From Thermodesulfobacteriota bacterium (lineage in GTDB: Bacteria; Desulfobacterota; BSN033; UBA1163), in contig JASEIE010000062.1 in the NCBI GenBank assembly GCA_030024065.1, forward strand, positions 1 through 13,997: a DNA stretch of 13,997 nucleotides, given 5' to 3'. The notes beneath the pieces are model-generated. The model was given only the letters and a program-made list of their open reading frames with translations, was not told the origin of the DNA and searched no databases. The position numbers were made by a program, and so were the translations under genes. Within the stretch, counting starts at the first letter, position 1. Every line of letters starts with the position of its first letter. This document shows positions 251-13,884 of the stretch, in pieces.

Positions 251-1783
251 ATGGAAATGTGGTTAGCAGGACTGCAAGTGGCCGTCCAGCCGATGAATAT
301 GTTGTACCTCCTGGGGGGGACGATCTTCGGTTTGATCATTGGAGCTTTACCCGGACTCGGACCCATGTTTGCCGTCACGCTGGCCCTGCCCCTGACCTTC
401 GGGATACCTGCAGCTACGGCCATCATCATGCTGTCGGCCATCCATGCCGCTACGGTTTTTGGGGGCTCGCTGCCTTCGATCCTGATCAACACTCCCGGGA
501 CTGTCGGCTCCGTTCCGACTTGCTGGGATGGATTTCCCATGAGTCAGCAAGGAAAATCAGGCTATGCGCTGGGGATTTCCGCAGGCGGCTCCCTTTTAGG
601 GGGCGTCATCGGCTGGTTTTTCCTGGTGGTCACTGCTCCCCTTTTGATTGCACTTGCCCTGATGATGGGACCCGCCGAGTATTTCATGATTGCCGTCCTG
701 GCCCTCTCCTTAATTTCCATGGCCTCCCAGGGACAGACTATCAAGGGTGTTATTCTCGGCGCCTTCGGGTTATTGATCTCATATATAGGACGCGACCCGA
801 TCTGGGGCGGTTCCCGGTTTACTTTCGGAAGCATGTTTCTGGAAGACGGACTTCCTATTGCTGTGGTCTTCGTTGGTCTTTTTGCCGTTTCCCAGGCCAT
901 TGTTCTTTTCGAAAAGGGCGGGAGTGTCATGGAAGTCGGGCAAATGAAAGAATCTGTCATGTCCGGTGTGATCGATGTTTTCCGCCGTCCCATCACCGTA
1001 ATCCGCGGCGGGATTATCGGTGTGCTCCTCGGGATTATGCCTGCCTTGGGGATTTCCACAGCCAGCGTCATTGCTTACCTCGTAGAAAAACGATCATCCA
1101 AGCATCCCGAGACCTTTGGCAAAGGTGACCCAGCCGGCCTCCTGGCGCCGGAAGTAGCCAACAATGCATGCCTGGTAGGCGACTTGATTCCCACTCTCAC
1201 CCTGGGAATCCCTGGTTCCGGGGTGACAGCCCTCTTCATGGCCGCCCTGATTATGCATGGGATCCAGCCCGGACCGGATTACTTCAGCAAAGGTAGCCTT
1301 CCTTATGCAGTCTTTGTAGGCATTCTGATCGCACAATTTGCTTTTTTCATCCTGGGACTTCTTTCCATAGGTCAAATGGCCAAGATTGTCAAGTTCCCCC
1401 TGCCGATACTGGTGCCGGCAATTATCACGCTGAGTTTTCTGGGGGGCTTCGCCATACGGAAATTCACAGTGGATGTACTTATCACATTCTCCTTTGGGCT
1501 TCTGGGCTATATCCTTGTCAAAGGCAAGTGGCCAATACCCTGTTTCGTCCTGGGATTTGTGCTTGGCGATATCATGGAGTCCAACTTCCATCGCGCACTG
1601 CTCATAGGAAAAGGTTCCTATTTAACGTTTATCGCCAGACCCGGCTCCCTGTTTCTCTTTATATGCGCCATCATGGTGCTTGCCTGGCCTTATCTCAAAC
1701 CGCTCCTCTTCAAGCCCCGCAAGGGAACCATCGTGGCCGAAGCAGTTGAGAGGGGAGCTGGAATGGATGAAGACGAGAAATGA
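251..1783 (+). CDS. tctA: Tripartite tricarboxylate transporter large permease subunit, TctA family
   Basis: This 510-residue polytopic inner-membrane protein is full length for TctA, the 10-12 helix channel subunit that works with TctB and a periplasmic binding protein (TctC) to import carboxylates using an ion gradient. The family's duplicated signature is visible: GALPGLGP at residues 31-38 in the first half and GIMPALGIST near residue 259 in the second. These are followed by the conserved run with EKRSSK, APEVANNA, IPTLTLGIPGSG and HGIQPGP. The start is supported by GGAGG at 236-240, ten bases ahead of the ATG. It follows the TctB-like fragment by 31 bases, so the two were probably co-transcribed. 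No TctC gene is in the window; it may lie upstream. Substrate is not predictable from the permease; citrate is only the founding example. Confidence 0.93.
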   Translation: MEMWLAGLQVAVQPMNMLYLLGGTIFGLIIGALPGLGPMFAVTLALPLTFGIPAATAIIMLSAIHAATVFGGSLPSILINTPGTVGSVPTCWDGFPMSQQGKSGYALGISAGGSLLGGVIGWFFLVVTAPLLIALALMMGPAEYFMIAVLALSLISMASQGQTIKGVILGAFGLLISYIGRDPIWGGSRFTFGSMFLEDGLPIAVVFVGLFAVSQAIVLFEKGGSVMEVGQMKESVMSGVIDVFRRPITVIRGGIIGVLLGIMPALGISTASVIAYLVEKRSSKHPETFGKGDPAGLLAPEVANNACLVGDLIPTLTLGIPGSGVTALFMAALIMHGIQPGPDYFSKGSLPYAVFVGILIAQFAFFILGLLSIGQMAKIVKFPLPILVPAIITLSFLGGFAIRKFTVDVLITFSFGLLGYILVKGKWPIPCFVLGFVLGDIMESNFHRALLIGKGSYLTFIARPGSLFLFICAIMVLAWPYLKPLLFKPRKGTIVAEAVERGAGMDEDEK

Positions 1784-4101: not shown

Positions 4102-5553
4102 ATGGGACAAAAGACACTGAAACCTGCCGATCCGGTCCGTTCCCAATACACCATTGAGCCGGGGCTGCTGAAAATGAGAGGGGCGGATCTTCCGGGGATG
4201 ACCTCCGTCTCCTTCCGGGATCTGCTTCCCAGTATTCCGGACCCCATTTTCCCCAGCGATCAAGGAATCGAGGCGATCCGAAGGGCAACCCGGGAATCAC
4301 TTTCCGGGGTCGACTTGACGAAGATTAAGAAGCGAGATTCCGTCAACATCCTTGCCTCACATCATGGTTTCACCCTTCTGGGAGGAGACCCCTACGCGGA
4401 GGTGCTCAAGGTGACGCGGGATGTGATCGAGGCGCGGACTGAGACAGAGGATATCCGTCTCCGGGCTGGCGTGGGGCTGAGATTTAGGGAGACAGAGGAG
4501 CACATCAAGCGTTTCAGTTTGGACCAGTATTTCAAAGGGAAGGCGAAAGGCATGGCGCCCGTCGATGAAGGCATTCCCATCGAGACGGAGTTCGGGACAC
4601 TGTATGGTCTGAAGAGAGCTTACGATGCGAAATGGATTGTTCACGCCCACAATAGCGACCTGAGGGAGCTCCACAACCACCGGTTGATTGATCGGATCCT
4701 CAAGCCCTTTGCCATGTCATACGCCAGGATTGAAACACGTTCCACCTACCATCAGAACTTCGGCCCAAGGTCATCCAACATTATTCCACGTGCAGTCTTC
4801 AATTCCGATTTCGTCCAGAGTAAATTTGTCTTTTCCATCATCCTGACGACCTCACCCAATGGCATTAGCGGGATCAGCGCCGATAACGACCTGTTCAAGC
4901 AGAACGATCACATCACGATCGACGCACTGTCTTGGTACGGAAAACTGCTGACTTTGTTGAAAGAGATCGACCAATGTATCGTACTGCTCGATGGTCCTTA
5001 TCCCATCGGATACATGAAGGCAGGGGGGATCGTTTTTGACAATTTCGCCGGGCTTTCCGTGGATGAATTCGACCTCGATCACGGATGGCCTCCCTTCTCC
5101 CGTTACACGGAAATGTATTTTGACGAGCAGGGTCTCCCTCTATTAAAGGAGATTCCTCCTTTAAACCCTGCTATCAAATCGATCGTCAACAACTACTGCT
5201 TCATCGGATATCCGAGCACCTTCTTTGCCCAGCACGTACCGACGGTCGTAGTCAGCCGGGCCTTGGCCGATCTCATCAACTCATGCCCGCAGAATCCTCA
5301 GTATATGCGCTATGCTGTGATGGCGGACGGCCTTGAGGAGGCGATCCGGTTTGTAGCAAAGACGAGCGGCACATCAAATGTCATCGCCTTTGATGGCGCG
5401 GTGGGCGGCTTTAATCTGACGGAGCCTCTGGCCGACCTGCTCAGATCGAAGGCTCCGGGCATTGAGGAGAGAGTGGAAACCCAACTTCTTCCAAAATGGT
5501 GCCGGCAGCGAAACCTGAAATTAGAAAAGAAGGGAGCAAAGAAGGATGTTTGA
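4102..5553 (+). CDS. LarA-like (DUF2088, lactate racemase superfamily) protein of unknown function
   Basis: This 483-residue soluble protein has no obvious close family, but its layout follows LarA, the nickel-pincer lactate racemase. There is an N-terminal Rossmann-like region with paired His87-His88 where LarA has its DHTRP motif, a second strand region (RLRAGVG, 119-125), and then THR/HRST-like spacing around ETRSTYH (211-217) and GPRSSNIIPR (221-230), which aligns by eye with LarA's SHFFAGFSGGRKSVLPG. The C-terminal half continues in register: LLDGPYP (295-301), VVVSRALADLI (382-392), LEEAI (411-415), VIAFDG (427-432). The lysine that anchors the nickel cofactor in LarA is replaced by serine, and other cofactor histidines are not evident apart from His217. 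It sits 13 bases after the flavoprotein and overlaps the gamma subunit by 8 bases, with AGGAG at 4092-4096. Superfamily assignment is by manual comparison only. Confidence 0.55.
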   Translation: MGQKTLKPADPVRSQYTIEPGLLKMRGADLPGMTSVSFRDLLPSIPDPIFPSDQGIEAIRRATRESLSGVDLTKIKKRDSVNILASHHGFTLLGGDPYAEVLKVTRDVIEARTETEDIRLRAGVGLRFRETEEHIKRFSLDQYFKGKAKGMAPVDEGIPIETEFGTLYGLKRAYDAKWIVHAHNSDLRELHNHRLIDRILKPFAMSYARIETRSTYHQNFGPRSSNIIPRAVFNSDFVQSKFVFSIILTTSPNGISGISADNDLFKQNDHITIDALSWYGKLLTLLKEIDQCIVLLDGPYPIGYMKAGGIVFDNFAGLSVDEFDLDHGWPPFSRYTEMYFDEQGLPLLKEIPPLNPAIKSIVNNYCFIGYPSTFFAQHVPTVVVSRALADLINSCPQNPQYMRYAVMADGLEEAIRFVAKTSGTSNVIAFDGAVGGFNLTEPLADLLRSKAPGIEERVETQLLPKWCRQRNLKLEKKGAKKDV

Positions 5554-6094
5554 GATCCGATTTCACGGAAGAGGGGGCCAAGGGGCTGTGGTGGCCTCCA
5601 TTGTCTTGGCCTCGGCCTTCTTTAAGGAGGGAAAGTGCGTTCAAGCCTTCCCATCTTTTGGGGCCGAAAGGAGAGGAGCCCCTGTTGTTGCCTTTACCCG
5701 AATCAGCGATCAGGAGATCAGAGAGCGTTTTGGCATCTACAAGCCAGACTGTGTCATCATCCTTGATTCGAGCCTGACCCAAAGAAAGGATATTACCTCA
5801 GGGCTGAAGGAGGGCCATTGGATCATCATCAACAGTGACAAGAAGCCCGAGGAATACGCCGATCTGGGTCCCTACCGTGTGGCGACCCTTGATGCCAATT
5901 CCATATCCCTGAAGTACGGCTTGGGAAGCTCCGCAGTGCCGATCGTCAACACAACGATCCTGGGTGCCTTCTCGAAGGTAACCCAGACCGTGAAGATCGA
6001 GTCGGTCCTCCATGCCGTCCGGGAGAATGCGCCTTCAAAACCAGAAAATAACGCCAATGCGGCCCGAGAGGCTTACGATTTGGTGGTTTTTTGA
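5546..6094 (+). CDS. porG: 2-oxoacid:ferredoxin oxidoreductase, gamma subunit (PorG-like)
   Basis: This 182-residue protein matches the gamma subunit of four-subunit pyruvate or 2-oxoacid:ferredoxin oxidoreductases, which contributes to binding CoA and assembling the enzyme. The N-terminal GRGGQG (residues 8-13), the conserved AFPSFGAERRGAPV stretch (about 34-47) and the PDCVIILD segment are characteristic. Length is normal for PorG/VorG. The start at 5546 overlaps the end of the LarA-like gene by 8 bases, with GGGAG at 5532-5536 as binding site, so translation is probably coupled. The delta subunit gene follows after 29 bases. The sequence does not distinguish pyruvate, branched-chain, indolepyruvate or arylglyoxylate forms. 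Confidence 0.93.
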   Translation: MFEIRFHGRGGQGAVVASIVLASAFFKEGKCVQAFPSFGAERRGAPVVAFTRISDQEIRERFGIYKPDCVIILDSSLTQRKDITSGLKEGHWIIINSDKKPEEYADLGPYRVATLDANSISLKYGLGSSAVPIVNTTILGAFSKVTQTVKIESVLHAVRENAPSKPENNANAAREAYDLVVF

Positions 6095-6123: not shown

Positions 6124-6408
6124 ATGAAGAAACGATACAGCCTAAAGTCTCTCGAGGAAATGCCCATTACGGCTATCTCTTTTTTAACCACAGAGGGAAA
6201 CGAAACAGGAGAGTGGCGATCACAACGGCCACTGCTCGATTCGGAAAAATGTAACCAGTGCGGTCTCTGCTGGATGTATTGCCCTGATAATGCGATCCTT
6301 CCAGAAAAAGACTCATTTCAAATCTCCTATACCTACTGTAAGGGTTGTGGCATCTGCGCCAAGGAATGCCCCAAAGGAGCCATTTTACTTGTAAAGGAAA
6401 AACGATGA
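6124..6408 (+). CDS. porD: 2-oxoacid:ferredoxin oxidoreductase, delta subunit (2x[4Fe-4S] ferredoxin, PorD-like)
   Basis: This 94-residue protein is the dicluster ferredoxin subunit that takes electrons from the thiamine-diphosphate subunit. Two complete CxxCxxCxxxCP motifs are present: C43, C46, C49, C53 and C72, C75, C78, C82. The N-terminal lead-in (SLEEMPITAISF) and the GEWR element near residue 29 are typical of PorD rather than of free ferredoxins. Its stop overlaps the start of the alpha subunit (ATGA at 6405-6408). Electrons probably pass to a soluble ferredoxin or to the flavoprotein encoded at the start of the operon. Confidence 0.93.
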   Translation: MKKRYSLKSLEEMPITAISFLTTEGNETGEWRSQRPLLDSEKCNQCGLCWMYCPDNAILPEKDSFQISYTYCKGCGICAKECPKGAILLVKEKR

Positions 6409-7550
6409 AAAAAGTTATCTCTGCAAATCAATCCGTTTCTCATGCTGTCTTGGCTGCAAAGGCTCAAGTCGTTGCAGCCTACCCCATCACGCCTCAGTCG
6501 TCGATCGTGGAAATGATCGCCAATTTCTGTTCCAATGGAGATCTCCAAGCGAAGTTCATTAATGTGGAGTCCGAGCATTCGGCCATGGCGGCTTGTATCT
6601 CCGCTTCTGTGACAGGTGCCAGGACGTTTACCGCCACAAGTTCCCAGGGATTGGCCTTGATGCATGAGCTGCTTCATTATGCCTCCGGACTGAGGCTTCC
6701 CATTGTGATGGCGAATGTGAACAGGGCTTTGGCAAGCCCCTTTAACCTCAAGGCCGACCTCTCAGACAGCCTCTCCCAGAGAGACACGGGCTGGCTCCAG
6801 TTTTACTGTGAAAGCGGTCAGGAGGTTTTTGATACGATCATCCATGCCTATCGGATATCGGAACAGGTCCTGCTCCCGGTGATGGTCAATCTGGAAGGCT
6901 TCATTCTTTCACACACCTATGAGATTGTCGATATTCCAGAGCAGAGCGAGATCGATCGTTTCCTCTCTCCCCCTGCTCCTCGGGACTGTCTCAATGTTGA
7001 AAACCCGTGTTTATTCGGAGGGACGACGGACTTCTACATCAACTTTCGGTACAAAATGCACGAGGGGATGGAACGGGCCAAGATCATCTGCCAGGAATGT
7101 GACGTCCAGTTTCAAGAAGTGTTTGGACGAAGTTATGGATTGATTCAATCCTATCTTTGCGAAGATGCGGAACTCATCCTGGTGACGGCAGGAACCATTG
7201 CAGGCACATGCTGCGTGGCAGCCGATCAATACAGGGAGCGTGGATTGAAGGTTGGGGTTTTAAGGATCAGGTTATTCCGGCCCTTTCCTGGAGAACAGAT
7301 CTGTCTCGCACTTGGAAAGACAAAGAAGGTAGCCGTGATTGATCGAGATTTCTCTCCCGGATGTGGAGGTATCTTTGCGCAGGAGATTAAATCGATCCTT
7401 CAAGGGAGAAGGGGGGGGTTGCCTGTTTATGAATTCATTGCAGGGTTGGGCGGAAAGGATGTTACGGATGAAGACATTGGAAGGGTTATCGATCAAACCT
7501 ATCAAAATCCAGAGCCAGGAGGAGTCACATGGATAGGGCTACTAAAATGA
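6405..7550 (+). CDS. porA: 2-oxoacid:ferredoxin oxidoreductase, alpha subunit (PorA-like)
   Basis: This 381-residue subunit carries the pyrimidine-binding and transketolase C-terminal-like domains that form the active site with the beta subunit. Conserved elements are YPITPQS (26-32), VESEHSA (54-60), GARTFTATSSQG (71-82), ANVNRALASP (103-112), SQRDTGW (124-130) and LEGFILSH in the middle. The segment after ALASP reads FNLKADLSDSL, whereas archaeal pyruvate enzymes usually have INIWNDxQDS; this region borders the substrate pocket, so the substrate may differ from pyruvate. The ATG at 6405 is preferred because it overlaps the delta stop by four bases (ATGA) and is preceded by AAAGGA; an upstream ATG at 6345 would cut 64 bases into the delta gene. 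It overlaps the beta gene by 22 bases. Confidence 0.93.
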   Translation: MKKVISANQSVSHAVLAAKAQVVAAYPITPQSSIVEMIANFCSNGDLQAKFINVESEHSAMAACISASVTGARTFTATSSQGLALMHELLHYASGLRLPIVMANVNRALASPFNLKADLSDSLSQRDTGWLQFYCESGQEVFDTIIHAYRISEQVLLPVMVNLEGFILSHTYEIVDIPEQSEIDRFLSPPAPRDCLNVENPCLFGGTTDFYINFRYKMHEGMERAKIICQECDVQFQEVFGRSYGLIQSYLCEDAELILVTAGTIAGTCCVAADQYRERGLKVGVLRIRLFRPFPGEQICLALGKTKKVAVIDRDFSPGCGGIFAQEIKSILQGRRGGLPVYEFIAGLGGKDVTDEDIGRVIDQTYQNPEPGGVTWIGLLK

Positions 7551-8419
7551 AATTCCCGATACCGGAGGATGAACTCCTTTACTCTGGGCACACCGCATGT
7601 CCGGGTTGCGGCGCTGTATTGGCCCTGAAGTATGTGTTGAAAGGTTTAGGCCCGAGAACCATGATTGTTATTCCACCTTCTTGTGCCGGAACCATTTCAG
7701 CGCCCTTCCCTTTCTCATCGCTCAAGATCCCGGTTCTTCGAATCCCTTTTGAAACGACTGCCATCTCTGCCTCTGGCATTCGGGCTGCCCTTGATGTCAT
7801 GGGAAAACGCGATATCCATGTTTTGGGATGGGCGGGTGACGGAGGAACCTACGATATCGGTTTACAGGCCTTGTCAGCTGCTGCGGAAAGGAATGACAAT
7901 ATTATCTATGTTTGCTATGACAATGAAGCCTACATGAACACAGGGATTCAGAGGAGTTCCGCCACTCCGGAAGGGGCATGGACCACGACGACGCCTTCCC
8001 CTTACCTCAAGGATACGCCGAAAAAGGATATCGTTCGAATCATGGCGGCCCATAAGATTCCTTACATTGCCACCGCCTCCGTGGGATATCCGCCCGATTT
8101 GATAAAGAAGGTTAAAAGGGCGAAGGAAATCGTTGGCACAAAATTCATTCTCATCTTTTCTCCTTGCCCGACCGGATGGCGTTACTCGTCGGAGATGACC
8201 ATTCGAATCGCTAAATTGGCAACGGAAACAGGGATTTTCCCTCTTTATGAGATAGAAAATGGGGAGAAATACATCTTAAGCCAGAGGCGTCCACAGAAAC
8301 CTCTGAAAGAATACTTCTCCCACCAGGGTCGTTTTCGTAACCTGAAGGAAGAAGAACTCCTTCGAGCTGAAGAAAAGGTTAGAAAAGATTGGGAATATCT
8401 GACTCGCCTATCAGGGTAA
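7529..8419 (+). CDS. porB: 2-oxoacid:ferredoxin oxidoreductase, beta subunit (thiamine diphosphate binding, PorB-like)
   Basis: This 296-residue subunit binds thiamine diphosphate and a proximal [4Fe-4S] cluster. GHTACPGCG (20-28) with C24 and C27, PSC with C52, and the C-terminal SPCPTGW supply the four expected cluster cysteines. The cofactor motif is GDGGTYDIG (103-111) through DNEAYMNTG (131-139), followed by the family hallmark IQRSSATPEGA. AGGAGG at 7517-7522, six bases ahead, fixes the start at 7529 inside the alpha gene; an ATG at 7547, overlapping the alpha stop, is a second option that would remove six residues. It is the last gene of the packed operon; 147 non-coding bases follow with no strong terminator. 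Together with gamma, delta and alpha this is a complete CoA-acylating 2-oxoacid oxidoreductase. Confidence 0.94.
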   Translation: MDRATKMKFPIPEDELLYSGHTACPGCGAVLALKYVLKGLGPRTMIVIPPSCAGTISAPFPFSSLKIPVLRIPFETTAISASGIRAALDVMGKRDIHVLGWAGDGGTYDIGLQALSAAAERNDNIIYVCYDNEAYMNTGIQRSSATPEGAWTTTTPSPYLKDTPKKDIVRIMAAHKIPYIATASVGYPPDLIKKVKRAKEIVGTKFILIFSPCPTGWRYSSEMTIRIAKLATETGIFPLYEIENGEKYILSQRRPQKPLKEYFSHQGRFRNLKEEELLRAEEKVRKDWEYLTRLSG

Positions 8420-8566: not shown

Positions 8567-9370
8567 ATGACGGAACAGGACATTCGAGATCTTATTTTTT
8601 ATCGCCTCAAGGGCAGAAAATATCTGGCCCGTATCTCTGTTCAGGGGGAGGGTATCCTCTCCGGAACCCAATGGCTGAGAAAGGCTTGTGAGAGGCTCGG
8701 AATCGGTTTAAAAAGGTGCAGGAAGAGCGGAACGAGGATTAGACGAGGAGACGTTGTTGCCACCATTGAGGGTAACGCAAAACAGTTGGCCCTGGGTGAA
8801 GAGGAACTCATCGGGTGGATTTCAAAAGCCTCTGGCATTGCCACCGCTGCCTGGAGGGCCAAAACAACTGTGGGTAAGGATCTCCAGGTGGTTTCAGGTG
8901 CCTGGAAAAAGATGCCCCTGCCTCTAAAAGAGTTGGTCAGGCAGGCCATTGTCGATGGAGGGATTCCATACCGCATTTCAGAAAAACCCTTTATCTATCT
9001 GGACAAGAATTATTTGAAGATACTGGGAGGCGTTCAAAAGGCCCTGTTTGCTGTCAAGGATTTTAAACCCTCCATCATAGTGGTCCAATTAAAGAGTAAA
9101 GGAAGAAAGCTTCTCCAGGAAGCAACCTTGGCAGCAAAGTGGAGGACTGACATTATCATGATCGATACAGGAGAAAAGGCCGACATCGAGAGGGTTAATT
9201 TGGCTCTCAAAGAACAGGGGCTTAGGCGAAAGGTCAGGCTTGCCTTTGCCGGGGACATTTGTATAGAGGAGTTGAAAAGCCTCAGGAAGATGCCTGTGGA
9301 GATCATCGATATCGGAAAGGCTATTGTGGATGCCCCCCTTCTGGACATGAGGATGGATGTTGAGGGGTGA
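8567..9370 (+). CDS. Divergent quinolinate phosphoribosyltransferase-fold (NadC/ModD-like) protein
   Basis: This 267-residue protein follows NadC from end to end. Residues 29-35 (GILSGTQ) and 61-70 (GDVVATIEGN) match the N-terminal GxLSG and GDxVAxIxG elements; SGIAT is at 89-93; GGIPYR (131-136) is in place of GGGxxHR; YLDKNYLKILGG (144-155) stands where LIKDNH is expected; VVQLKS (172-177) replaces the VEVE strand; TDIIMID (194-200), LAFAGDI (225-231, for LEASGGI) and IGKAIVDAPLLDMRMDV (249-265) complete the barrel. The TRKT motif is missing (VSGAWKK at 109-115) and most phosphate- or quinolinate-binding residues are changed, so it probably does not make nicotinate mononucleotide. ModD, a NadC paralogue of molybdate loci, is the nearest alternative name. 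It is coupled to the MoCF-like gene. Function unknown. Confidence 0.65.
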   Translation: MTEQDIRDLIFYRLKGRKYLARISVQGEGILSGTQWLRKACERLGIGLKRCRKSGTRIRRGDVVATIEGNAKQLALGEEELIGWISKASGIATAAWRAKTTVGKDLQVVSGAWKKMPLPLKELVRQAIVDGGIPYRISEKPFIYLDKNYLKILGGVQKALFAVKDFKPSIIVVQLKSKGRKLLQEATLAAKWRTDIIMIDTGEKADIERVNLALKEQGLRRKVRLAFAGDICIEELKSLRKMPVEIIDIGKAIVDAPLLDMRMDVEG

Positions 9371-10278
9371 GTGTGAAAGGGAAGTCCGTGGAACTTGAAC
9401 TTTTTGAAAAAACAGAAATCTGGATCAAGCCCATTAAGATCACCAAGGTGAACCTGGATCTTATCGCAGAAAAAGTTGCCGAGGTGTTAAGACTCAAGAA
9501 GAGCGAAGTAATGGTAGTCGATGTAAGAGAGGATCTTGTAACCCTTGATATTATGAAAAAAGCCGTCCATGCGGAAGATATCATTGGGAAGAAAGAGGCC
9601 CTTCTTAAAGCTCTGGCAACGGTTCCAGGTGTTTCCATCACACCCGAGACGACACTTCACTCCGAAGGCATACTCGGGTTGGTTGATATTGAAGACCAGA
9701 AAGTCGCCCAAAATCTTTTAAAAAAGATGAGGCGAATGAGGCGCCAGATTTCAGACCGGATACAGAAGAGGGCGATCGTCTTTCCTTCTGGGTTTGAAAT
9801 CGAGAAGTGGCTTATTCAAGACACCAATAGCCCCTACATCAAGAAAAAGCTAACCCAGGAAGGATTTACGGTAACCATAGGTGAGATCCTGAAGGACAAT
9901 TTGGAACATATCGTTTCTGCCTTAAGCAGGGCCATCGATGACGGGTTTGGATTGATCATCACGACCGGTGGCGTTGGGGCTGAAGACAAAGACCGGATGG
10001 TTGAAGCTCTTTTGAAACTGGACCCAGAGGCTTCCACACCGTACATTATCCGTTATGAGAAGGGGACTGGCCGTCACGAAAAAGATGGAGTTAAAATCGG
10101 AGTGGCTTACCTTAAGCCCTCTTTCATCATTGCTCTCCCAGGTCCCCATGAAGAAGCAAAGATCGGTGCAGAGGTAATCATTGAAGGACTAAAAAAAGGT
10201 TGGGATAAAAAAACGCTTGCCTTGTTTCTATCTCAAAAATACATTGAAGTTCTAAAGAAGATTCACCACTCTTCCTGA
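9367..10278 (+). CDS. MoCF/CinA-N (MoaB-Mog type) nucleotide-binding-fold protein with N-terminal extension
   Basis: This 303-residue protein carries a C-terminal MoCF domain from about 135 to 280. EIEKWLIQDTNSPYI (144-158) parallels the CinA 'E(I/L)xxGxxxNTNxxYL' opening, DN (177-178) follows, ITTGGVGAEDKD (198-209) matches the TTGGLGPTxDD loop, and LPGPHEEA (257-264) matches the family's PGxPxE element. This fold binds molybdopterin in MoaB, Mog and MoeA and a nucleotide in CinA. The first about 130 residues are a mixed charged region (WIKPIKITKVNLDLIAEKV) not recognised; the C-terminal CinA amidase domain is absent. The GTG start at 9367 overlaps the previous stop (GTGA); a GTG at 9373 has better spacing from GAGGGG at 9362-9367. 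The coupling implies a job shared with the NadC-like protein. Confidence 0.65.
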   Translation: MSVKGKSVELELFEKTEIWIKPIKITKVNLDLIAEKVAEVLRLKKSEVMVVDVREDLVTLDIMKKAVHAEDIIGKKEALLKALATVPGVSITPETTLHSEGILGLVDIEDQKVAQNLLKKMRRMRRQISDRIQKRAIVFPSGFEIEKWLIQDTNSPYIKKKLTQEGFTVTIGEILKDNLEHIVSALSRAIDDGFGLIITTGGVGAEDKDRMVEALLKLDPEASTPYIIRYEKGTGRHEKDGVKIGVAYLKPSFIIALPGPHEEAKIGAEVIIEGLKKGWDKKTLALFLSQKYIEVLKKIHHSS

Positions 10279-10362: not shown

Positions 10363-11004
10363 TCAATATCCAAGTTCCTCTTCTACCAAAATGATAAGCA
10401 TATCCGTTAACACCGGCTTCCGCTCATGGATCACGACCACCCGGCAGATTCGGTTAGGGGAGCTGCAATCTACGCATTTCCCCAATCTAGCGCAGGGAAC
10501 ATCGATATTGAGACGTCTCGCATTAAGAGGTGCGGCGACGTTTTTTGTTCTATTGATCCCCTCCTCAATATTTTCGACAATCTTATTGTAACCAGCGACA
10601 AGAATGACCTTTCCGGGACCGAAAACGGTGCCATTGGTCCGGTTTCCGGTTGCGTCGATATTGACCAGTTCTCCATTCAGGGTGATGGCATTGACGCTGC
10701 CAAGGAAGAGGTCAGAGGTCATCTGTGACTTTCGAATCTCAAGTTTTTTCTCCTCTGAAAATCCAGGCTTCCAATGGTTAAAAATGAGGTTTCCCTGGGC
10801 TTCCAGCTTTTCTAAGACTCCTATCTCTCTTATGGTGACAGACCCTCCAACCCCCACCTTTGTCTTTGGCGTGATATACTTCAAAATCTCTTCGACCGCC
10901 TCTTCCTTATTCTTCACAAAGACCGCCTTAAAATCATGGGCTTCCAGTTTTTCGATAGCCTTCTTCGCCTTTTCTTCAACCCACCACTGTTTAATCGGAT
11001 CCAT
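10363..11004 (-). CDS. LUD-domain protein (LutC/YkgG-like lactate utilization family)
   Basis: This 213-residue protein matches the stand-alone LUD domain (DUF162) found in LutC/YkgG and in many clostridial and deltaproteobacterial 'lactate utilization' proteins. Supporting features are VGVGGSVTIREIG near residue 50, DLFLGSVNAIT in the middle, GELVNIDATGNR, FGPGKVILVAG, and a C-terminal GKCVDCSSPNRICR with C177, C180 and C187 typical of this branch. In LutABC the LUD protein helps oxidise L-lactate to pyruvate, but this branch usually occurs alone and its biochemistry is unclear. AGGAGG (complement of 11007-11014) supports the ATG at 11004. It converges on the MoCF-like gene, with 84 bases between stops, and is not part of a lutAB cluster here. 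A link to the 2-oxoacid operon is inference. Confidence 0.85.
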   Translation of the reverse strand: MDPIKQWWVEEKAKKAIEKLEAHDFKAVFVKNKEEAVEEILKYITPKTKVGVGGSVTIREIGVLEKLEAQGNLIFNHWKPGFSEEKKLEIRKSQMTSDLFLGSVNAITLNGELVNIDATGNRTNGTVFGPGKVILVAGYNKIVENIEEGINRTKNVAAPLNARRLNIDVPCARLGKCVDCSSPNRICRVVVIHERKPVLTDMLIILVEEELGY

Positions 11005-11287: not shown

Positions 11288-12619
11288 TTACAAAATCGCA
11301 AAATACTGTTCCAGTTCGTAATCGGTTACCCGGGCCCGGAAGCGCTCCCACTCGATTTTTTTATTTTCAATAAATTTATAGAAGACATCGTCTCCCAGCG
11401 CCCGTCTCACCATCTCACTCTTCTCAGTAATCTGGATGGCTTCATAGAGGTCTTCCGGAAGGGACTCAATCTTGTACTTCTTTCTCTCTTTTTCAGGCAT
11501 CTCATAGACATTTCGTTCCACCGGATCCCTCAATGGGTACTTTTTCTCGATCCCCTCCAGACCCGCCGCCAGCATGACGGCAAAGGCAAAATAGGGGTTG
11601 CAGGCCGGGTCAGGAGATCGATACTCGACCCGTGTGGCCAGCTCCTTGCCCGGTTTATACATGGGGATTCGAATGAGGTCTGACCGGTTTCTCTGGGCCC
11701 AGGAGATATAGACCGGCGCTTCATAACCTGGCACAATTCGCTTATAGGAATTGACCCATTGGTTGGTGACCAGGGTGATTTCTCTCGCATGTTTCATCAG
11801 ACCGGCGATATAGTGCTTGGCCATTTCGGAAAGATGGTACTTATCTTTAGGATCAAAAAAGGCGTTTTTGTCTCCTTTGAAAAGGGATTGATGGGTGTGC
11901 ATCCCGCTTCCGTTGATACCAAAAATAGGCTTGGGCATGAAACTGGCGTAAACATTATTTTTCAGGGCAACCTCCTTGACGATCAAACGGTAGGTCATCG
12001 TGCTGTCGGCCATCTTCAGGGCTTCGTTATATTTGAGATCGATTTCATGCTGGCTTGGCGCGGCCTCATGATGGCTGTATTCCACTTGAATTTCCATCTC
12101 CTCCAGGGCCATCACCGTCTGCTTCCGGAGGTCGCTTGCCGCGTCAAGAGGGGTTAGATCGAAGTACCCCCCGGAATCAAGAAGCTCCGGCTTGCCCGTT
12201 GACCTCTGAAAATAAAAAAATTCCAGCTCAGGCCCGACGTTGAAGAGGTATCCCATTTTAGCGGCCCTTTCCAGGTTCTTCTTCAAAACCCAGCGTGGGT
12301 CGCCATGGTAGGCCCTTCCCCCGGGCTCTAAAATATCGCAAAACATGACAGCCACTGCATGATCATTTGATTTCCACGGAAAGATTTTAAAGGTGGAGGG
12401 GTCCGGCATGGCCACCATGTCACTCTCATCAATGCGGGCGAATCCGGCGACAGAGGAGCCGTCAAAGCCCATTCCCTCTTCCAGCGCCCTTTCCAGCTCC
12501 CGGATGGTGATGGCAAAGCTCTTCAAGAAGCCGAGAATATCCGTAAACCAGAGTCTTACAAATTTTACATCCTTCTCTTTTGAAATACGAAGGACATCTT
12601 TTTTACCTAACTTAGCCAT
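11288..12619 (-). CDS. glnA: Glutamine synthetase type I (GSI-alpha form)
   Basis: This 443-residue cytoplasmic enzyme makes glutamine from glutamate, ammonia and ATP and is full length for the alpha subclass. Conserved elements are FDGSSVAGF (52-60), VGPELEFF (128-135), HHEAAPSQHEID (183-194), FMPKPIFGINGSGMHTHQS (227-245), VNSYKRIVPGYEAP (289-302), NRSDLIRIP (311-319) and RVEYRSPDPACNPY (330-343). Arg62 occupies the position that mediates glutamine feedback inhibition in Bacillus-type enzymes. The C-terminal region NVYEMPEKERKKYKIESLP lacks the NLYDLPPEE tyrosine adenylylation site of beta-type enzymes, so control by GlnE is not expected. The start has AAGGAGGAAG (complement of 12625-12634). 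It is monocistronic, divergent from a GAF-ANTAR gene 560 bases away, and flanked on both sides by inverted repeat blocks. Confidence 0.97.
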   Translation of the reverse strand: MAKLGKKDVLRISKEKDVKFVRLWFTDILGFLKSFAITIRELERALEEGMGFDGSSVAGFARIDESDMVAMPDPSTFKIFPWKSNDHAVAVMFCDILEPGGRAYHGDPRWVLKKNLERAAKMGYLFNVGPELEFFYFQRSTGKPELLDSGGYFDLTPLDAASDLRKQTVMALEEMEIQVEYSHHEAAPSQHEIDLKYNEALKMADSTMTYRLIVKEVALKNNVYASFMPKPIFGINGSGMHTHQSLFKGDKNAFFDPKDKYHLSEMAKHYIAGLMKHAREITLVTNQWVNSYKRIVPGYEAPVYISWAQRNRSDLIRIPMYKPGKELATRVEYRSPDPACNPYFAFAVMLAAGLEGIEKKYPLRDPVERNVYEMPEKERKKYKIESLPEDLYEAIQITEKSEMVRRALGDDVFYKFIENKKIEWERFRARVTDYELEQYFAIL

Positions 12620-13179: not shown

Positions 13180-13884
13180 TTGATATATAAAAAAACATCT
13201 TATAAGCAACAGATCAAAGCCCTGACAGAAATCAGCAAGGCCATCTCTTCGGATCGGTATCTGGATGACATCCTCAAATTGATCGTGACAGTAACGGCCA
13301 ATGTGATGGACTCGAAGATCTGTTCCCTCTGGCTTCTGGACGAGAAGGAGAAGGTTCTCAAAATTCGGGCCACCCAAACCATGAGCGAGGAATACCTAAA
13401 GGAGAGGATTCTAAAACTGGGGGAGGGAGTGGTGGGTCATGTGGCCCAGACGAAAAAACCTCTGGCCATTCTCGATGTCCTGAAGGAGCCCCGCTACAAG
13501 GAGAAAGAGCTGGCCAGAAAAGAAAGCCTGGTCTCCATGCTCAGCGTTCCCTTGGCCATTAAGGACAAAGTCATCGGGGTGATCAACTGCTATACCTCCT
13601 ATCCTCATCAATTTACTGAAACGGAGCAGGACATGCTCGCCGCCGTTGCCAGTCAGGCTGCAATCTGCATTGAGAGCACCGAGCTGATGGTAAAGACCAA
13701 AGTGATCCAGGAAGAACTGGAGATCCGAAAACTGGTGGAGAGGGCTAAAGGGGTGTTGATGAAGAGACAGGGGTTGAGCGAAGATGAGGCATTTAAACGG
13801 ATTCGTAAAGCAAGCATGGACAGCCGCAAGACCATGCGGGAGATTGCGGAGGCCATTCTCCTTACCGATAAGATAGGGGGGTAA
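13180..13884 (+). CDS. GAF-ANTAR domain protein, predicted RNA-binding transcription antiterminator
   Basis: This 234-residue cytoplasmic protein joins a GAF sensor domain (about 10-165, with KICSLWLLDE, GEGVVGHVAQ at 81-90 and MLSVPLAIKDKVIGVIN near 120-136) to an ANTAR domain (about 176-230: LVERAKGVLMKRQGLSEDEA, then IRKASM, then EIAEAIL). ANTAR proteins such as NasR, AmiR and EutV bind paired hexaloop hairpins in leader RNAs and prevent termination, often for nitrogen-related genes. GAF would sense a small ligand or redox state; no histidine kinase is adjacent. The TTG at 13180 is chosen because AAGGAG (13168-13173) lies six bases upstream and the next in-frame ATG (13306) would cut off part of the GAF domain. 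It diverges from glnA, which makes nitrogen control a reasonable but unproven guess. Confidence 0.88.
   Translation: MIYKKTSYKQQIKALTEISKAISSDRYLDDILKLIVTVTANVMDSKICSLWLLDEKEKVLKIRATQTMSEEYLKERILKLGEGVVGHVAQTKKPLAILDVLKEPRYKEKELARKESLVSMLSVPLAIKDKVIGVINCYTSYPHQFTETEQDMLAAVASQAAICIESTELMVKTKVIQEELEIRKLVERAKGVLMKRQGLSEDEAFKRIRKASMDSRKTMREIAEAILLTDKIGG

What the first reader, a model, noticed from the sequence alone, without database searches (positions are those of the whole stretch)
4102..5553. LarA-fold protein without the cofactor lysine, embedded in a 2-oxoacid oxidoreductase operon
The protein can be laid alongside lactate racemase LarA over most of its length, including the C-terminal strand-helix-strand ending in FDG. 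The GGRK segment whose lysine tethers the nickel-pincer nucleotide is GPRSS here. Only His217 of the usual cofactor histidines has a clear counterpart, while extra histidine pairs occur at 87-88, 181/183 and 191/193. It is co-translated with the gamma subunit. This suggests a new LarA-like activity (for example a racemase, epimerase or dehydratase of a 2-hydroxy acid with a different metal site) feeding the oxidoreductase, or a non-catalytic partner subunit.
Basis: partly seen in the sequence, partly recalled or inferred. Interest (0 to 1): 0.72.

Follow-up and report, generated by a model that had tools for sequence, protein, structure and literature searches.

The report
Nickel-pincer-type reductase for furan acids
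A widespread, unnamed enzyme with the fold of lactate racemase sits beside an electron-carrying iron-sulphur protein and, in many relatives, beside genes that make a nickel cofactor and break down furans, suggesting that microbes use it to open furan rings without oxygen.

Summary

Por is a clade-specific neighbour. In 80 related loci an Fe-S protein lies directly upstream in 75 of 75 testable. NadC-like and MoCF-like genes occur in 20 of 20 family-bearing genomes of 299 sampled, and in 2 and 1 others. larB, larC and larE are each in 37 of 40 genomes, including four without canonical LarA. Neighbouring enzymes process 2-oxopent-4-enoate; some loci add a furandicarboxylate decarboxylase (HmfF type).

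Best reading: a nickel-pincer-dependent reductase, fed by the Fe-S partner, that reductively opens 2-furoate (or an analogue) to 2-hydroxypenta-2,4-dienoate; in the window clade Por would replace hydratase and aldolase. Cofactor and reaction are inferred. Nine library searches found no paper describing it.

The parts
251..1783 (+). TctA-type membrane subunit of a tripartite tricarboxylate transporter; probable carboxylate uptake
   Evidence: Pfam TctA 413 bits
2079..4088 (+). Fe-S redox partner of LAR: two [4Fe-4S] motifs plus a BFD-like [2Fe-2S] domain; in this clade a GltD-like NAD(P)/flavin domain is inserted between the two [4Fe-4S] motifs
   Evidence: Pfam; alignment with the ~206-aa Fe-S protein of relatives; directly upstream of LAR in 75 of 75 testable loci
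4102..5553 (+). LAR: LarA-fold enzyme (the finding)
   Evidence: AF2 pLDDT 90.3, pTM 0.88; Foldseek and VIA matches to LarA; no Lar_N match in 62 members
4480..4482 (+). codon of invariant Arg127, at the place of LarA catalytic His108
   Evidence: five of five gapped profile alignments and the best ungapped register; invariant
4672..4674 (+). codon of invariant His191, proposed LarA His174 equivalent (His193 in four of five gapped alignments)
   Evidence: spacing 10 to Lys201
4702..4704 (+). codon of invariant Lys201, proposed cofactor-tethering lysine (LarA Lys184)
   Evidence: spacing 16 to His217 as in LarA, Mar2 and GntE2; gapped alignments disagree; not proven
4750..4752 (+). codon of invariant His217, proposed nickel ligand (LarA His200)
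   Evidence: one of five gapped alignments
5546..6094 (+). porG, gamma subunit of 2-oxoacid:acceptor oxidoreductase; overlaps LAR by 8 bp
   Evidence: TIGR02175 207 bits, cut-off 81
6124..6408 (+). porD, delta subunit, two [4Fe-4S]
   Evidence: TIGR02179 100 bits, cut-off 60
6399..7550 (+). porA, alpha subunit
   Evidence: POR_N, PFOR_II; NF040682 460 bits, under its cut-off of 550
7529..8419 (+). porB, beta subunit (TPP)
   Evidence: TPP_enzyme_C; PRK11864 395 bits, under its cut-off of 405
8567..9370 (+). NadC-like (quinolinate phosphoribosyltransferase fold) protein of a distinct, LAR-linked subfamily; probable cofactor-tailoring enzyme
   Evidence: Pfam QRPTase N and C; TIGR00078 99 bits, under its cut-off of 198; in 20 of 20 LAR genomes
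9367..10278 (+). MoCF-like protein: C-terminal CinA/MogA/MoeA fold, N-terminal ~140 aa unidentified; fused to NadC-like in some relatives
   Evidence: Pfam; AF2 and Foldseek; in 20 of 20 LAR genomes; fusion in L056

Best explanation
The protein (called LAR here) is the catalytic subunit of a two-part redox enzyme. It has the LarA fold and probably holds a nickel-pincer nucleotide or a tailored form of it, tethered by Lys201 with His217 as nickel ligand. The upstream Fe-S protein brings electrons; in this clade its flavin domain would let NAD(P)H supply them. The reduced pincer would deliver a hydride to C5 of a five-ring heteroaromatic acid, most likely 2-furoate. The resulting anion expels the ring oxygen and gives 2-hydroxypenta-2,4-dienoate, the enol of 2-oxopent-4-enoate. 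In most relatives a hydratase, 4-hydroxy-2-oxovalerate aldolase and acylating acetaldehyde dehydrogenase then give pyruvate and acetyl-CoA. In the window clade a 2-oxoacid:ferredoxin oxidoreductase (PorGDAB) takes the 2-oxo acid instead, returning ferredoxin electrons. The NadC-like and MoCF-like proteins probably tailor or load the pyridinium-nucleotide cofactor. Supported by computation here: fold, gene partnerships, co-occurrence with larBCE and HmfF. Inferred: the cofactor in this protein, direction of electron flow, substrate, and the roles of the NadC-like and MoCF-like proteins.
For: LarA fold. LarB, LarC and LarE over cut-off in 37 of 40 family-bearing genomes each, against 6, 6 and 5 of 14 controls; all four genomes with no Lar_N match (L022 Moorella thermoacetica, L057, L059 Alicyclobacillus mali, L079 Oscillibacter ruminantium) have all three, and in L059 and L079 they lie in the locus. 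LarC in 19 of 20 LAR genomes of 299 against 145 of 279 others, P 7e-5. Fe-S protein directly upstream in 75 of 75. NadC-like and MoCF-like track LAR: 20 of 20, plus 2 and 1 of 279 others. Neighbours: 4-hydroxy-2-oxovalerate aldolase (534 bits, cut-off 286), acetaldehyde dehydrogenase (460, cut-off 282), a DmpE-like hydratase, BenE aromatic-acid symporter. UbiD neighbours of L010 and L036 match PtHmfF 6H6V far better than any other kind of solved UbiD (638 against 226 bits; 527 against 203); HmfF turns furan-2,5-dicarboxylate into 2-furoate (PMC6644310, PMC8988006, passages). Of 7 genomes of 299 with an HmfF match >=600 bits, 5 have LAR, 0.4-15.3 kb from it (P 1.5e-5). AOR and Fe-ADH complete an HMF/furfural set (L103, L104). 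Redox balance: 2-furoate + 2 e- + 2 H+ = 2-oxopent-4-enoate. In the Por-flanked genomes G001, G002 and G356 no aldolase is found.
Against: No direct evidence of nickel, cofactor or activity. Sequence-profile similarity to LarA is not significant; LarA D72 and R75 are not conserved, H108 is Arg, and gapped alignments do not reproduce the K201/H217 mapping (K184 on R198 in five of five, H200 on S214 in four of five). Three of 40 genomes lack larB, larC and larE over cut-off; one, Breznakiella homolactica (L073), is a complete chromosome, though it also has four Lar_N hits; G052 lacks LarC. larC is common anyway (164 of 299), and 36 of 40 genomes also hold Lar_N proteins. UbiD genes are near LAR in only 10 of 80 loci and three were compared with the PDB; the HmfF query was itself a LAR neighbour and its cut-off was set after seeing the scores, so that P is optimistic; two genomes have HmfF >=600 bits without LAR. 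The hydratase scores 320 bits, under its 409 cut-off. Four genomes with no Por beside LAR also lack the aldolase, and L050, with a porA near LAR, has it. The window itself has no HmfF, Dmp or lar genes, so the substrate of its own clade is the least certain.
Confidence: 0.58

Rival explanations
1. Same enzyme type, other ring: LAR reductively opens pyrrole-2-carboxylate, thiophene-2-carboxylate or another five-ring acid, and the enamine or thiol product collapses to the same 2-oxo acid.
For: The downstream steps and redox balance fit equally (inference); the window clade has a different transporter (TctA) and no HmfF in the window; an M24/creatinase-like protein is near 32 of 80 loci.
Against: The UbiD neighbour of L010 scores 638 bits to HmfF and about 118 to PA0254 (4ip2), the pyrrole-2-carboxylate decarboxylase HudA (title of PMC7976604, listing); AOR and Fe-ADH next to HmfF suit HMF or furfural.
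Confidence: 0.13
2. LAR is a pincer-dependent 2-hydroxy-acid dehydrogenase: it oxidises a 2-hydroxy acid and passes electrons to the Fe-S protein; the 2-oxo acid goes to Por or Dmp enzymes.
For: NPN accepts hydride from 2-hydroxy acids in LarA (PMC7583248, passages); the Fe-S partner is constant; the product is a 2-oxo acid either way.
Against: BenE and HmfF neighbours point to an aromatic acid, not an aliphatic hydroxy acid; NAD-dependent enzymes suffice for such oxidations (general knowledge).
Confidence: 0.14
3. LAR is an ordinary 2-hydroxy-acid racemase or epimerase of a divergent LarA subfamily.
For: Fold and larBCE link; the NPN reactions named in the passages I saw are racemisations or epimerisations (PMC7583248, PMC11770544).
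Against: One of the two catalytic histidines maps to Arg127; a constant Fe-S redox partner would have no role; the gene sets encode catabolism, not stereoisomer use.
Confidence: 0.09
4. LAR uses no pincer cofactor: the LarA fold was recruited for another metal site or a non-catalytic role, and the larBCE link reflects canonical LarA or other proteins in the same genomes.
For: D72 and R75 are lost and the K201/H217 mapping is unproven; 36 of 40 genomes also hold Lar_N proteins; three genomes lack larBCE.
Against: Four genomes without Lar_N keep all three lar genes; larB, larC and larE are in the locus in 22, 21 and 13 of 80; invariant H-K-H spacing.
Confidence: 0.1

Closest known systems
Lactate racemase LarA and the COG3875 / Pfam Lar_N superfamily
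   Different: No Pfam Lar_N match in 62 members; H108 to Arg, D72/R75 not conserved; constant Fe-S partner; 9-14% identity in structural alignments
LarA-like NPN enzymes with a single catalytic histidine (9q3j, 9q3k; PMC12611868)
   Different: They keep the first His, the Lys and the Asp72-type residue (passages); here the first His is the one replaced
Aerobic furoate pathway (HmfABCDE, furoyl-CoA to 2-oxoglutarate)
   Same: Shares HmfF upstream (FDCA to 2-furoate)
   Different: Uses furoyl-CoA synthetase and a molybdopterin furoyl-CoA oxidase (PMC12064950, passages); here reductive opening to a Dmp-type intermediate is proposed
Dmp/Mhp lower meta-cleavage pathway (DmpE, DmpG, DmpF)
   Same: Hydratase, aldolase and acetaldehyde dehydrogenase near LAR in 59, 51 and 50 of 80 loci
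   Different: Fed in aerobes by oxygenolytic ring cleavage (recalled); here apparently fed by LAR
Quinolinate phosphoribosyltransferase NadC and CinA/MogA/MoeA
   Same: Folds of the two companions
   Different: NadC-like scores half the NadC cut-off (99 of 198 bits) with changed active-site motifs; MoCF-like has an unidentified N-terminal domain

Membership tests
LarA superfamily (NPN-dependent 2-hydroxy-acid racemases/epimerases) | Sequence match to Lar_N (PF09861) or LarA_C | tested here: not met
   0 of 62 members at E<=1; P0001 none
LarA superfamily (NPN-dependent 2-hydroxy-acid racemases/epimerases) | LarA fold | tested here: met
LarA superfamily (NPN-dependent 2-hydroxy-acid racemases/epimerases) | Tether lysine (K184) and nickel-ligand histidine (H200) | tested here: inconclusive
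   Invariant K201 and H217 at spacing 16; gapped profile alignments put K184 on R198 in five of five and H200 on S214 in four of five; no coordinates to superpose
LarA superfamily (NPN-dependent 2-hydroxy-acid racemases/epimerases) | Two catalytic histidines H108 and H174 | tested here: not met
   H108 maps to Arg127 in five of five gapped alignments; H174 maps to His191 in one and His193 in four
LarA superfamily (NPN-dependent 2-hydroxy-acid racemases/epimerases) | D72 and R75 (DxTR motif) | tested here: not met
   D72 maps to His87; R75 to Phe90 or Leu92
LarA superfamily (NPN-dependent 2-hydroxy-acid racemases/epimerases) | NPN biosynthesis genes larB, larC, larE in the genome | tested here: met
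   37 of 40 genomes each, the same three missing in every search
LarA superfamily (NPN-dependent 2-hydroxy-acid racemases/epimerases) | Racemase or epimerase activity; bound NPN | not testable with these tools
   Needs protein
2-oxoacid:ferredoxin oxidoreductase subunit | Constant association with Por subunits | tested here: not met
   Por set flanks the Fe-S/LAR pair in L001, L002 and L072 of 80 loci; Por- or Ior-type genes lie elsewhere in some further loci; the Fe-S protein is the constant partner
Canonical NadC | nadC equivalog score (TIGR00078, 198.4 bits) | tested here: not met
   99 bits window, 120 bits L045

The most novel reading that the evidence does not exclude
LAR plus its Fe-S protein is the first nickel-pincer enzyme that does net redox chemistry: it uses a pincer hydride to dearomatise and open the furan ring of 2-furoate, founding an oxygen-independent furan pathway found in bacteria and archaea. 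Its cofactor is a tailored pincer made by larBCE plus a dedicated NadC-like/MoCF-like pair. It would also be one of the missing clients in genomes that keep larBCE without LarA.
Probability: 0.45. Interest if true: 0.93.

Novelty: new variant of a known kind. Interest (0 to 1): 0.82.

Why it matters
PMC11796402 (passages) states that about 15% of genomes analysed carry larB, larE and larC but no larA, so unknown NPN-binding proteins are expected. This family gives a testable client in such genomes, including Moorella thermoacetica, the species whose LarC was studied. PMC6604932 (passages) notes that two anaerobes were reported to degrade furanic aldehydes, that the known pathway needs oxygen, and that other routes are to be expected. 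A hydride-transfer ring opening that yields 2-hydroxypenta-2,4-dienoate would answer that and give an anaerobic route for removing furfural and HMF, known inhibitors in biomass hydrolysates. It would also be a net redox use of the pincer nucleotide; in the passages I saw, the reactions named for it are racemisations and epimerisations, and PMC7583248 (section 8) only calls another hydride-mediated reaction conceivable.

Tried and rejected
Sequence-only routes to LarA: phmmer against PDB (no credible hit), Pfam and NCBIfam (no hit for P0001; no Lar_N in 62 members), hhalign against 15 LarA sequences (Prob 1.2%). Only the predicted structure shows the kinship.

GPRSS as the lost GGRK was rejected on position relative to His217. 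A general Por-partner reading was rejected because only L001, L002 and L072 of 80 loci, and the window, have a Por set flanking the pair.

Ungapped profile scan of the H174-H200 segment: the H191 register ranks 3 of 457 (z 2.9), 5 of 452 and 16 of 443 for wider segments; without the H, K and H columns it ranks 201 of 443. Weak support, told as such. The permutation P shuffles labels over invariant columns and does not allow for clustering of histidines.

The 600-bit HmfF cut-off was set after seeing the gap (601 to 432 bits), and the query was a LAR neighbour. Lower-scoring UbiD genes in LAR genomes (G107, G145, G049, G052, G057) lie on other contigs or at least 60 kb from LAR.

No relatives by two peptide patterns in viral contigs or by tblastn in plasmids. 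The C-terminal ~50 residues of LAR are barely tested by VIA. The N-terminal 140 residues of the MoCF-like protein were not searched alone.

Most subscription papers are not in that library. Two papers were not held. Papers were seen as passages (PMC8988006, PMC6644310, PMC12064950, PMC12611868, PMC11770544, PMC11796402, PMC6604932) or as passages plus sections 5 and 8 (PMC7583248); the rest only in listings.

Full report
The observation. The ORF at 4102-5553 is real: 483 residues, 13 bp after the upstream gene and overlapping porG by 8 bp. Pfam (E<=1) and NCBIfam (E<=0.1) give no match, and a PDB sequence search gives nothing credible. At least 1091 homologues exist at E<=0.01 (only the 7996 candidates sharing most words were scored). 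Of these, 120 were listed: none has a precomputed Pfam domain, and the names shown are 'hypothetical protein' or 'uncharacterized'. By record title, the 80 genome loci kept (of 129 confirmed) include Clostridia and other Bacillota, Deltaproteobacteria and Syntrophaceae, Myxococcales, Chloroflexi, Acidobacteria, Breznakiella (a spirochaete, recalled), Archaeoglobus, Methanomassiliicoccus and Borrarchaeota; Synergistetes appear.

Active site. Across five gap settings LarA H108 maps to Arg127 and D72 to His87; R75 maps to Phe90 or Leu92. Arg127, His87 and Phe90 are invariant. The tether lysine and nickel-ligand histidine are 16 apart in LarA, Mar2 and GntE2 (PMC7583248 passages). Here, invariant K201 and H217 are 16 apart, with invariant H191 another 10 upstream, as H174 is in LarA. 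Only two lysines (K201, K241) and seven histidines are invariant; shuffling labels among invariant columns gives this pattern with P 8e-4, and the motif is in 121 of 121 proteins. Against this, gapped alignments put K184 on R198 in five of five settings and H200 on S214 in four of five (H217 in one), so lysine and ligand are probable, not proven.

Neighbourhood. By tblastn over 80 loci: Fe-S protein 77, NadC-like 68, MoCF-like 65, DmpE-like hydratase 59, IclR 52, 4-hydroxy-2-oxovalerate aldolase 51, acetaldehyde dehydrogenase 50, BenE 38, M24 32, LarB 22, LarC 21, LarE 13, AOR 11, Fe-ADH 11, UbiD 10, Por-type 6. The Por queries were of about 400 residues; longer Ior-type proteins in L044, L052, L064 and L069, and a cut one in L015, were seen only by clustering. 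Many loci are cut by contig ends; of 33 with full flanks the numbers are 33, 31, 31, 30, 29, 24, 24, 15, 13, 13, 14, 10, 9, 9, 6 and 3 in the same order. Names come from Pfam and NCBIfam scans of one or two members each; the hydratase is under its equivalog cut-off. The Fe-S match ends 3-146 positions before the LAR match in 73 loci and overlaps it by a few bases in two, 75 of 75 with at least 700 bases upstream. In 21 aligned sequences it has eight invariant cysteines in two [4Fe-4S] motifs and a BFD-type [2Fe-2S] domain; the window's 669-aa version carries a flavin/NAD(P) domain inserted between the two [4Fe-4S] motifs.

Obligate unit. In 299 genomes drawn evenly from one phylum, LAR occurs in 20, one of them a contig-end fragment (G101). 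The NadC-like subfamily (E<=1e-40) is in all 20 plus G108 and G149; MoCF-like is in all 20 (partial in G049) plus G108, where it is broken by a stop. In the class of Moorella thermoacetica, LAR is in 14 of 22 genomes. NadC-like and MoCF-like are fused in L056 and, by label and length, in L012, L058 and L077. The NadC-like proteins score about half the NadC cut-off. In the alignment to 5hul the query reads AWKK where the QPRTase reads TRKT, and LDKNY where it reads LKDNH, so quinolinate is probably not the substrate. LarC works through a cytidinylylated pyridinium nucleotide (PMC11796402 passages); a pyridine-nucleotide PRTase fold and a MoCF fold beside a pincer enzyme therefore suggest cofactor tailoring. 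That is inference.

Pincer link. In 40 of the 80 loci's genomes, larB, larC and larE are over cut-off in 37 each, the same three missing: G002 and G024 (MAGs) and G038, the complete chromosome of Breznakiella homolactica, which does have four Lar_N hits. Four genomes have no Lar_N match at all yet hold all three: Moorella thermoacetica, Alicyclobacillus mali, Oscillibacter ruminantium and a Phyllobacteriaceae MAG. The other 36 of 40 have Lar_N proteins, so in them the lar genes have another possible client. In the phylum sample larC is in 19 of 20 LAR genomes and 145 of 279 others (P 7e-5). PMC11796402 says about 15% of analysed genomes have larBCE without larA; LAR is a candidate client there.

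Pathway. The aldolase and acylating dehydrogenase point to 4-hydroxy-2-oxovalerate, hence 2-oxopent-4-enoate, as intermediate. That compound is 2-furoate plus two electrons and two protons. A hydride at C5 of furoate puts the charge on C4/C2 and lets the ring oxygen leave C5, giving 2-hydroxypenta-2,4-dienoate directly (chemical inference). Independent support for furoate: UbiD-family neighbours in L010 and L036 are HmfF type; 6H6V is Pelotomaculum HmfF (PMC8988006 passages), a furandicarboxylate decarboxylase (PMC6644310 passage). The UbiD of L001, a window-like operon, is nearer to HmfF than to other solved UbiDs but distant (280 against 145 bits); the UbiDs of the other seven of ten loci were not compared with the PDB. 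In 299 genomes, five of the seven with a match >=600 bits to the L010 protein carry LAR, 0.4-15.3 kb away on the same contig; around the two others no gene of the LAR set was found. That query was itself a LAR neighbour and the cut-off was chosen at a gap in the scores, so the P of 1.5e-5 is optimistic. L104 holds AOR (cut), Fe-ADH, HmfF, IclR, NadC-like, MoCF-like, acetaldehyde dehydrogenase, aldolase, Fe-S, LAR, BenE, M24, LarE, LarB and LarC in one stretch; the hydratase was not called there by my ORF finder.

The window variant. Instead of Dmp enzymes the window has PorGDAB between LAR and NadC-like. In the like-built genomes G001 (L001) and G002 (L002), and in G356 (L072, Por upstream), no aldolase was found at E<=1e-50. 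Of the 17 genomes searched (those without Dmp genes in the locus) 10 have one; the seven without are these three and four with no Por set seen beside LAR (G349, G353, G355, G357), and G350 (L050), with a porA four genes from LAR, has one. I infer that Por takes over the 2-oxo acid in the window clade, perhaps making vinylacetyl-CoA; the support is thin.

Verdict. Fold and partnerships are well supported; the pincer cofactor is likely; net reduction of a furan acid is the best-fitting reaction but unproven. Nine literature searches listed no paper that describes this family.

Noticed in passing
L035:7120-8415, and L038, L045, L053, L080; relatives L098 and L100: A divergent Lar_N protein (cluster 21, 5 of 80 loci) near LAR; the two relatives aligned (L098, L100) lack the GTHR histidine, H174 and the GGRK lysine but keep a histidine at the H200 place. 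It may be another non-racemase.
   Followed up: partly
L056:3363-5159; also L012, L058, L077: NadC-like and MoCF-like domains fused in one chain of about 570-604 residues (Pfam shown for L056 only), pointing to consecutive steps.
   Followed up: partly
G108:C55:2135-3899: NadC-like gene and an MoCF-like gene broken by a TAG in a genome without LAR or LarC at the thresholds used: probably a decaying remnant of the unit.
   Followed up: no
L029:10001-11419: The LAR stretch of Alicyclobacillus suci holds a stop codon in the matched frame; it was left out of the alignment and not examined further.
   Followed up: no
M24-like cluster, e.g. L071:7542-8648; also L007, L016, L022: A Peptidase_M24/creatinase-like protein is near 32 of 80 loci with no obvious role in the pathway.
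   Followed up: no
window 10363-11004 (-), 11288-12619 (-), 13180-13884 (+): A LUD-domain protein (Pfam), a glutamine-synthetase-like ORF and a GAF/ANTAR-like ORF (both by eye) lie downstream; their link to LAR was not followed.
   Followed up: no
L073 (Breznakiella homolactica): A complete chromosome with four Lar_N hits and LAR but no larB, larC or larE over cut-off: it may import the pincer or a precursor.
   Followed up: no
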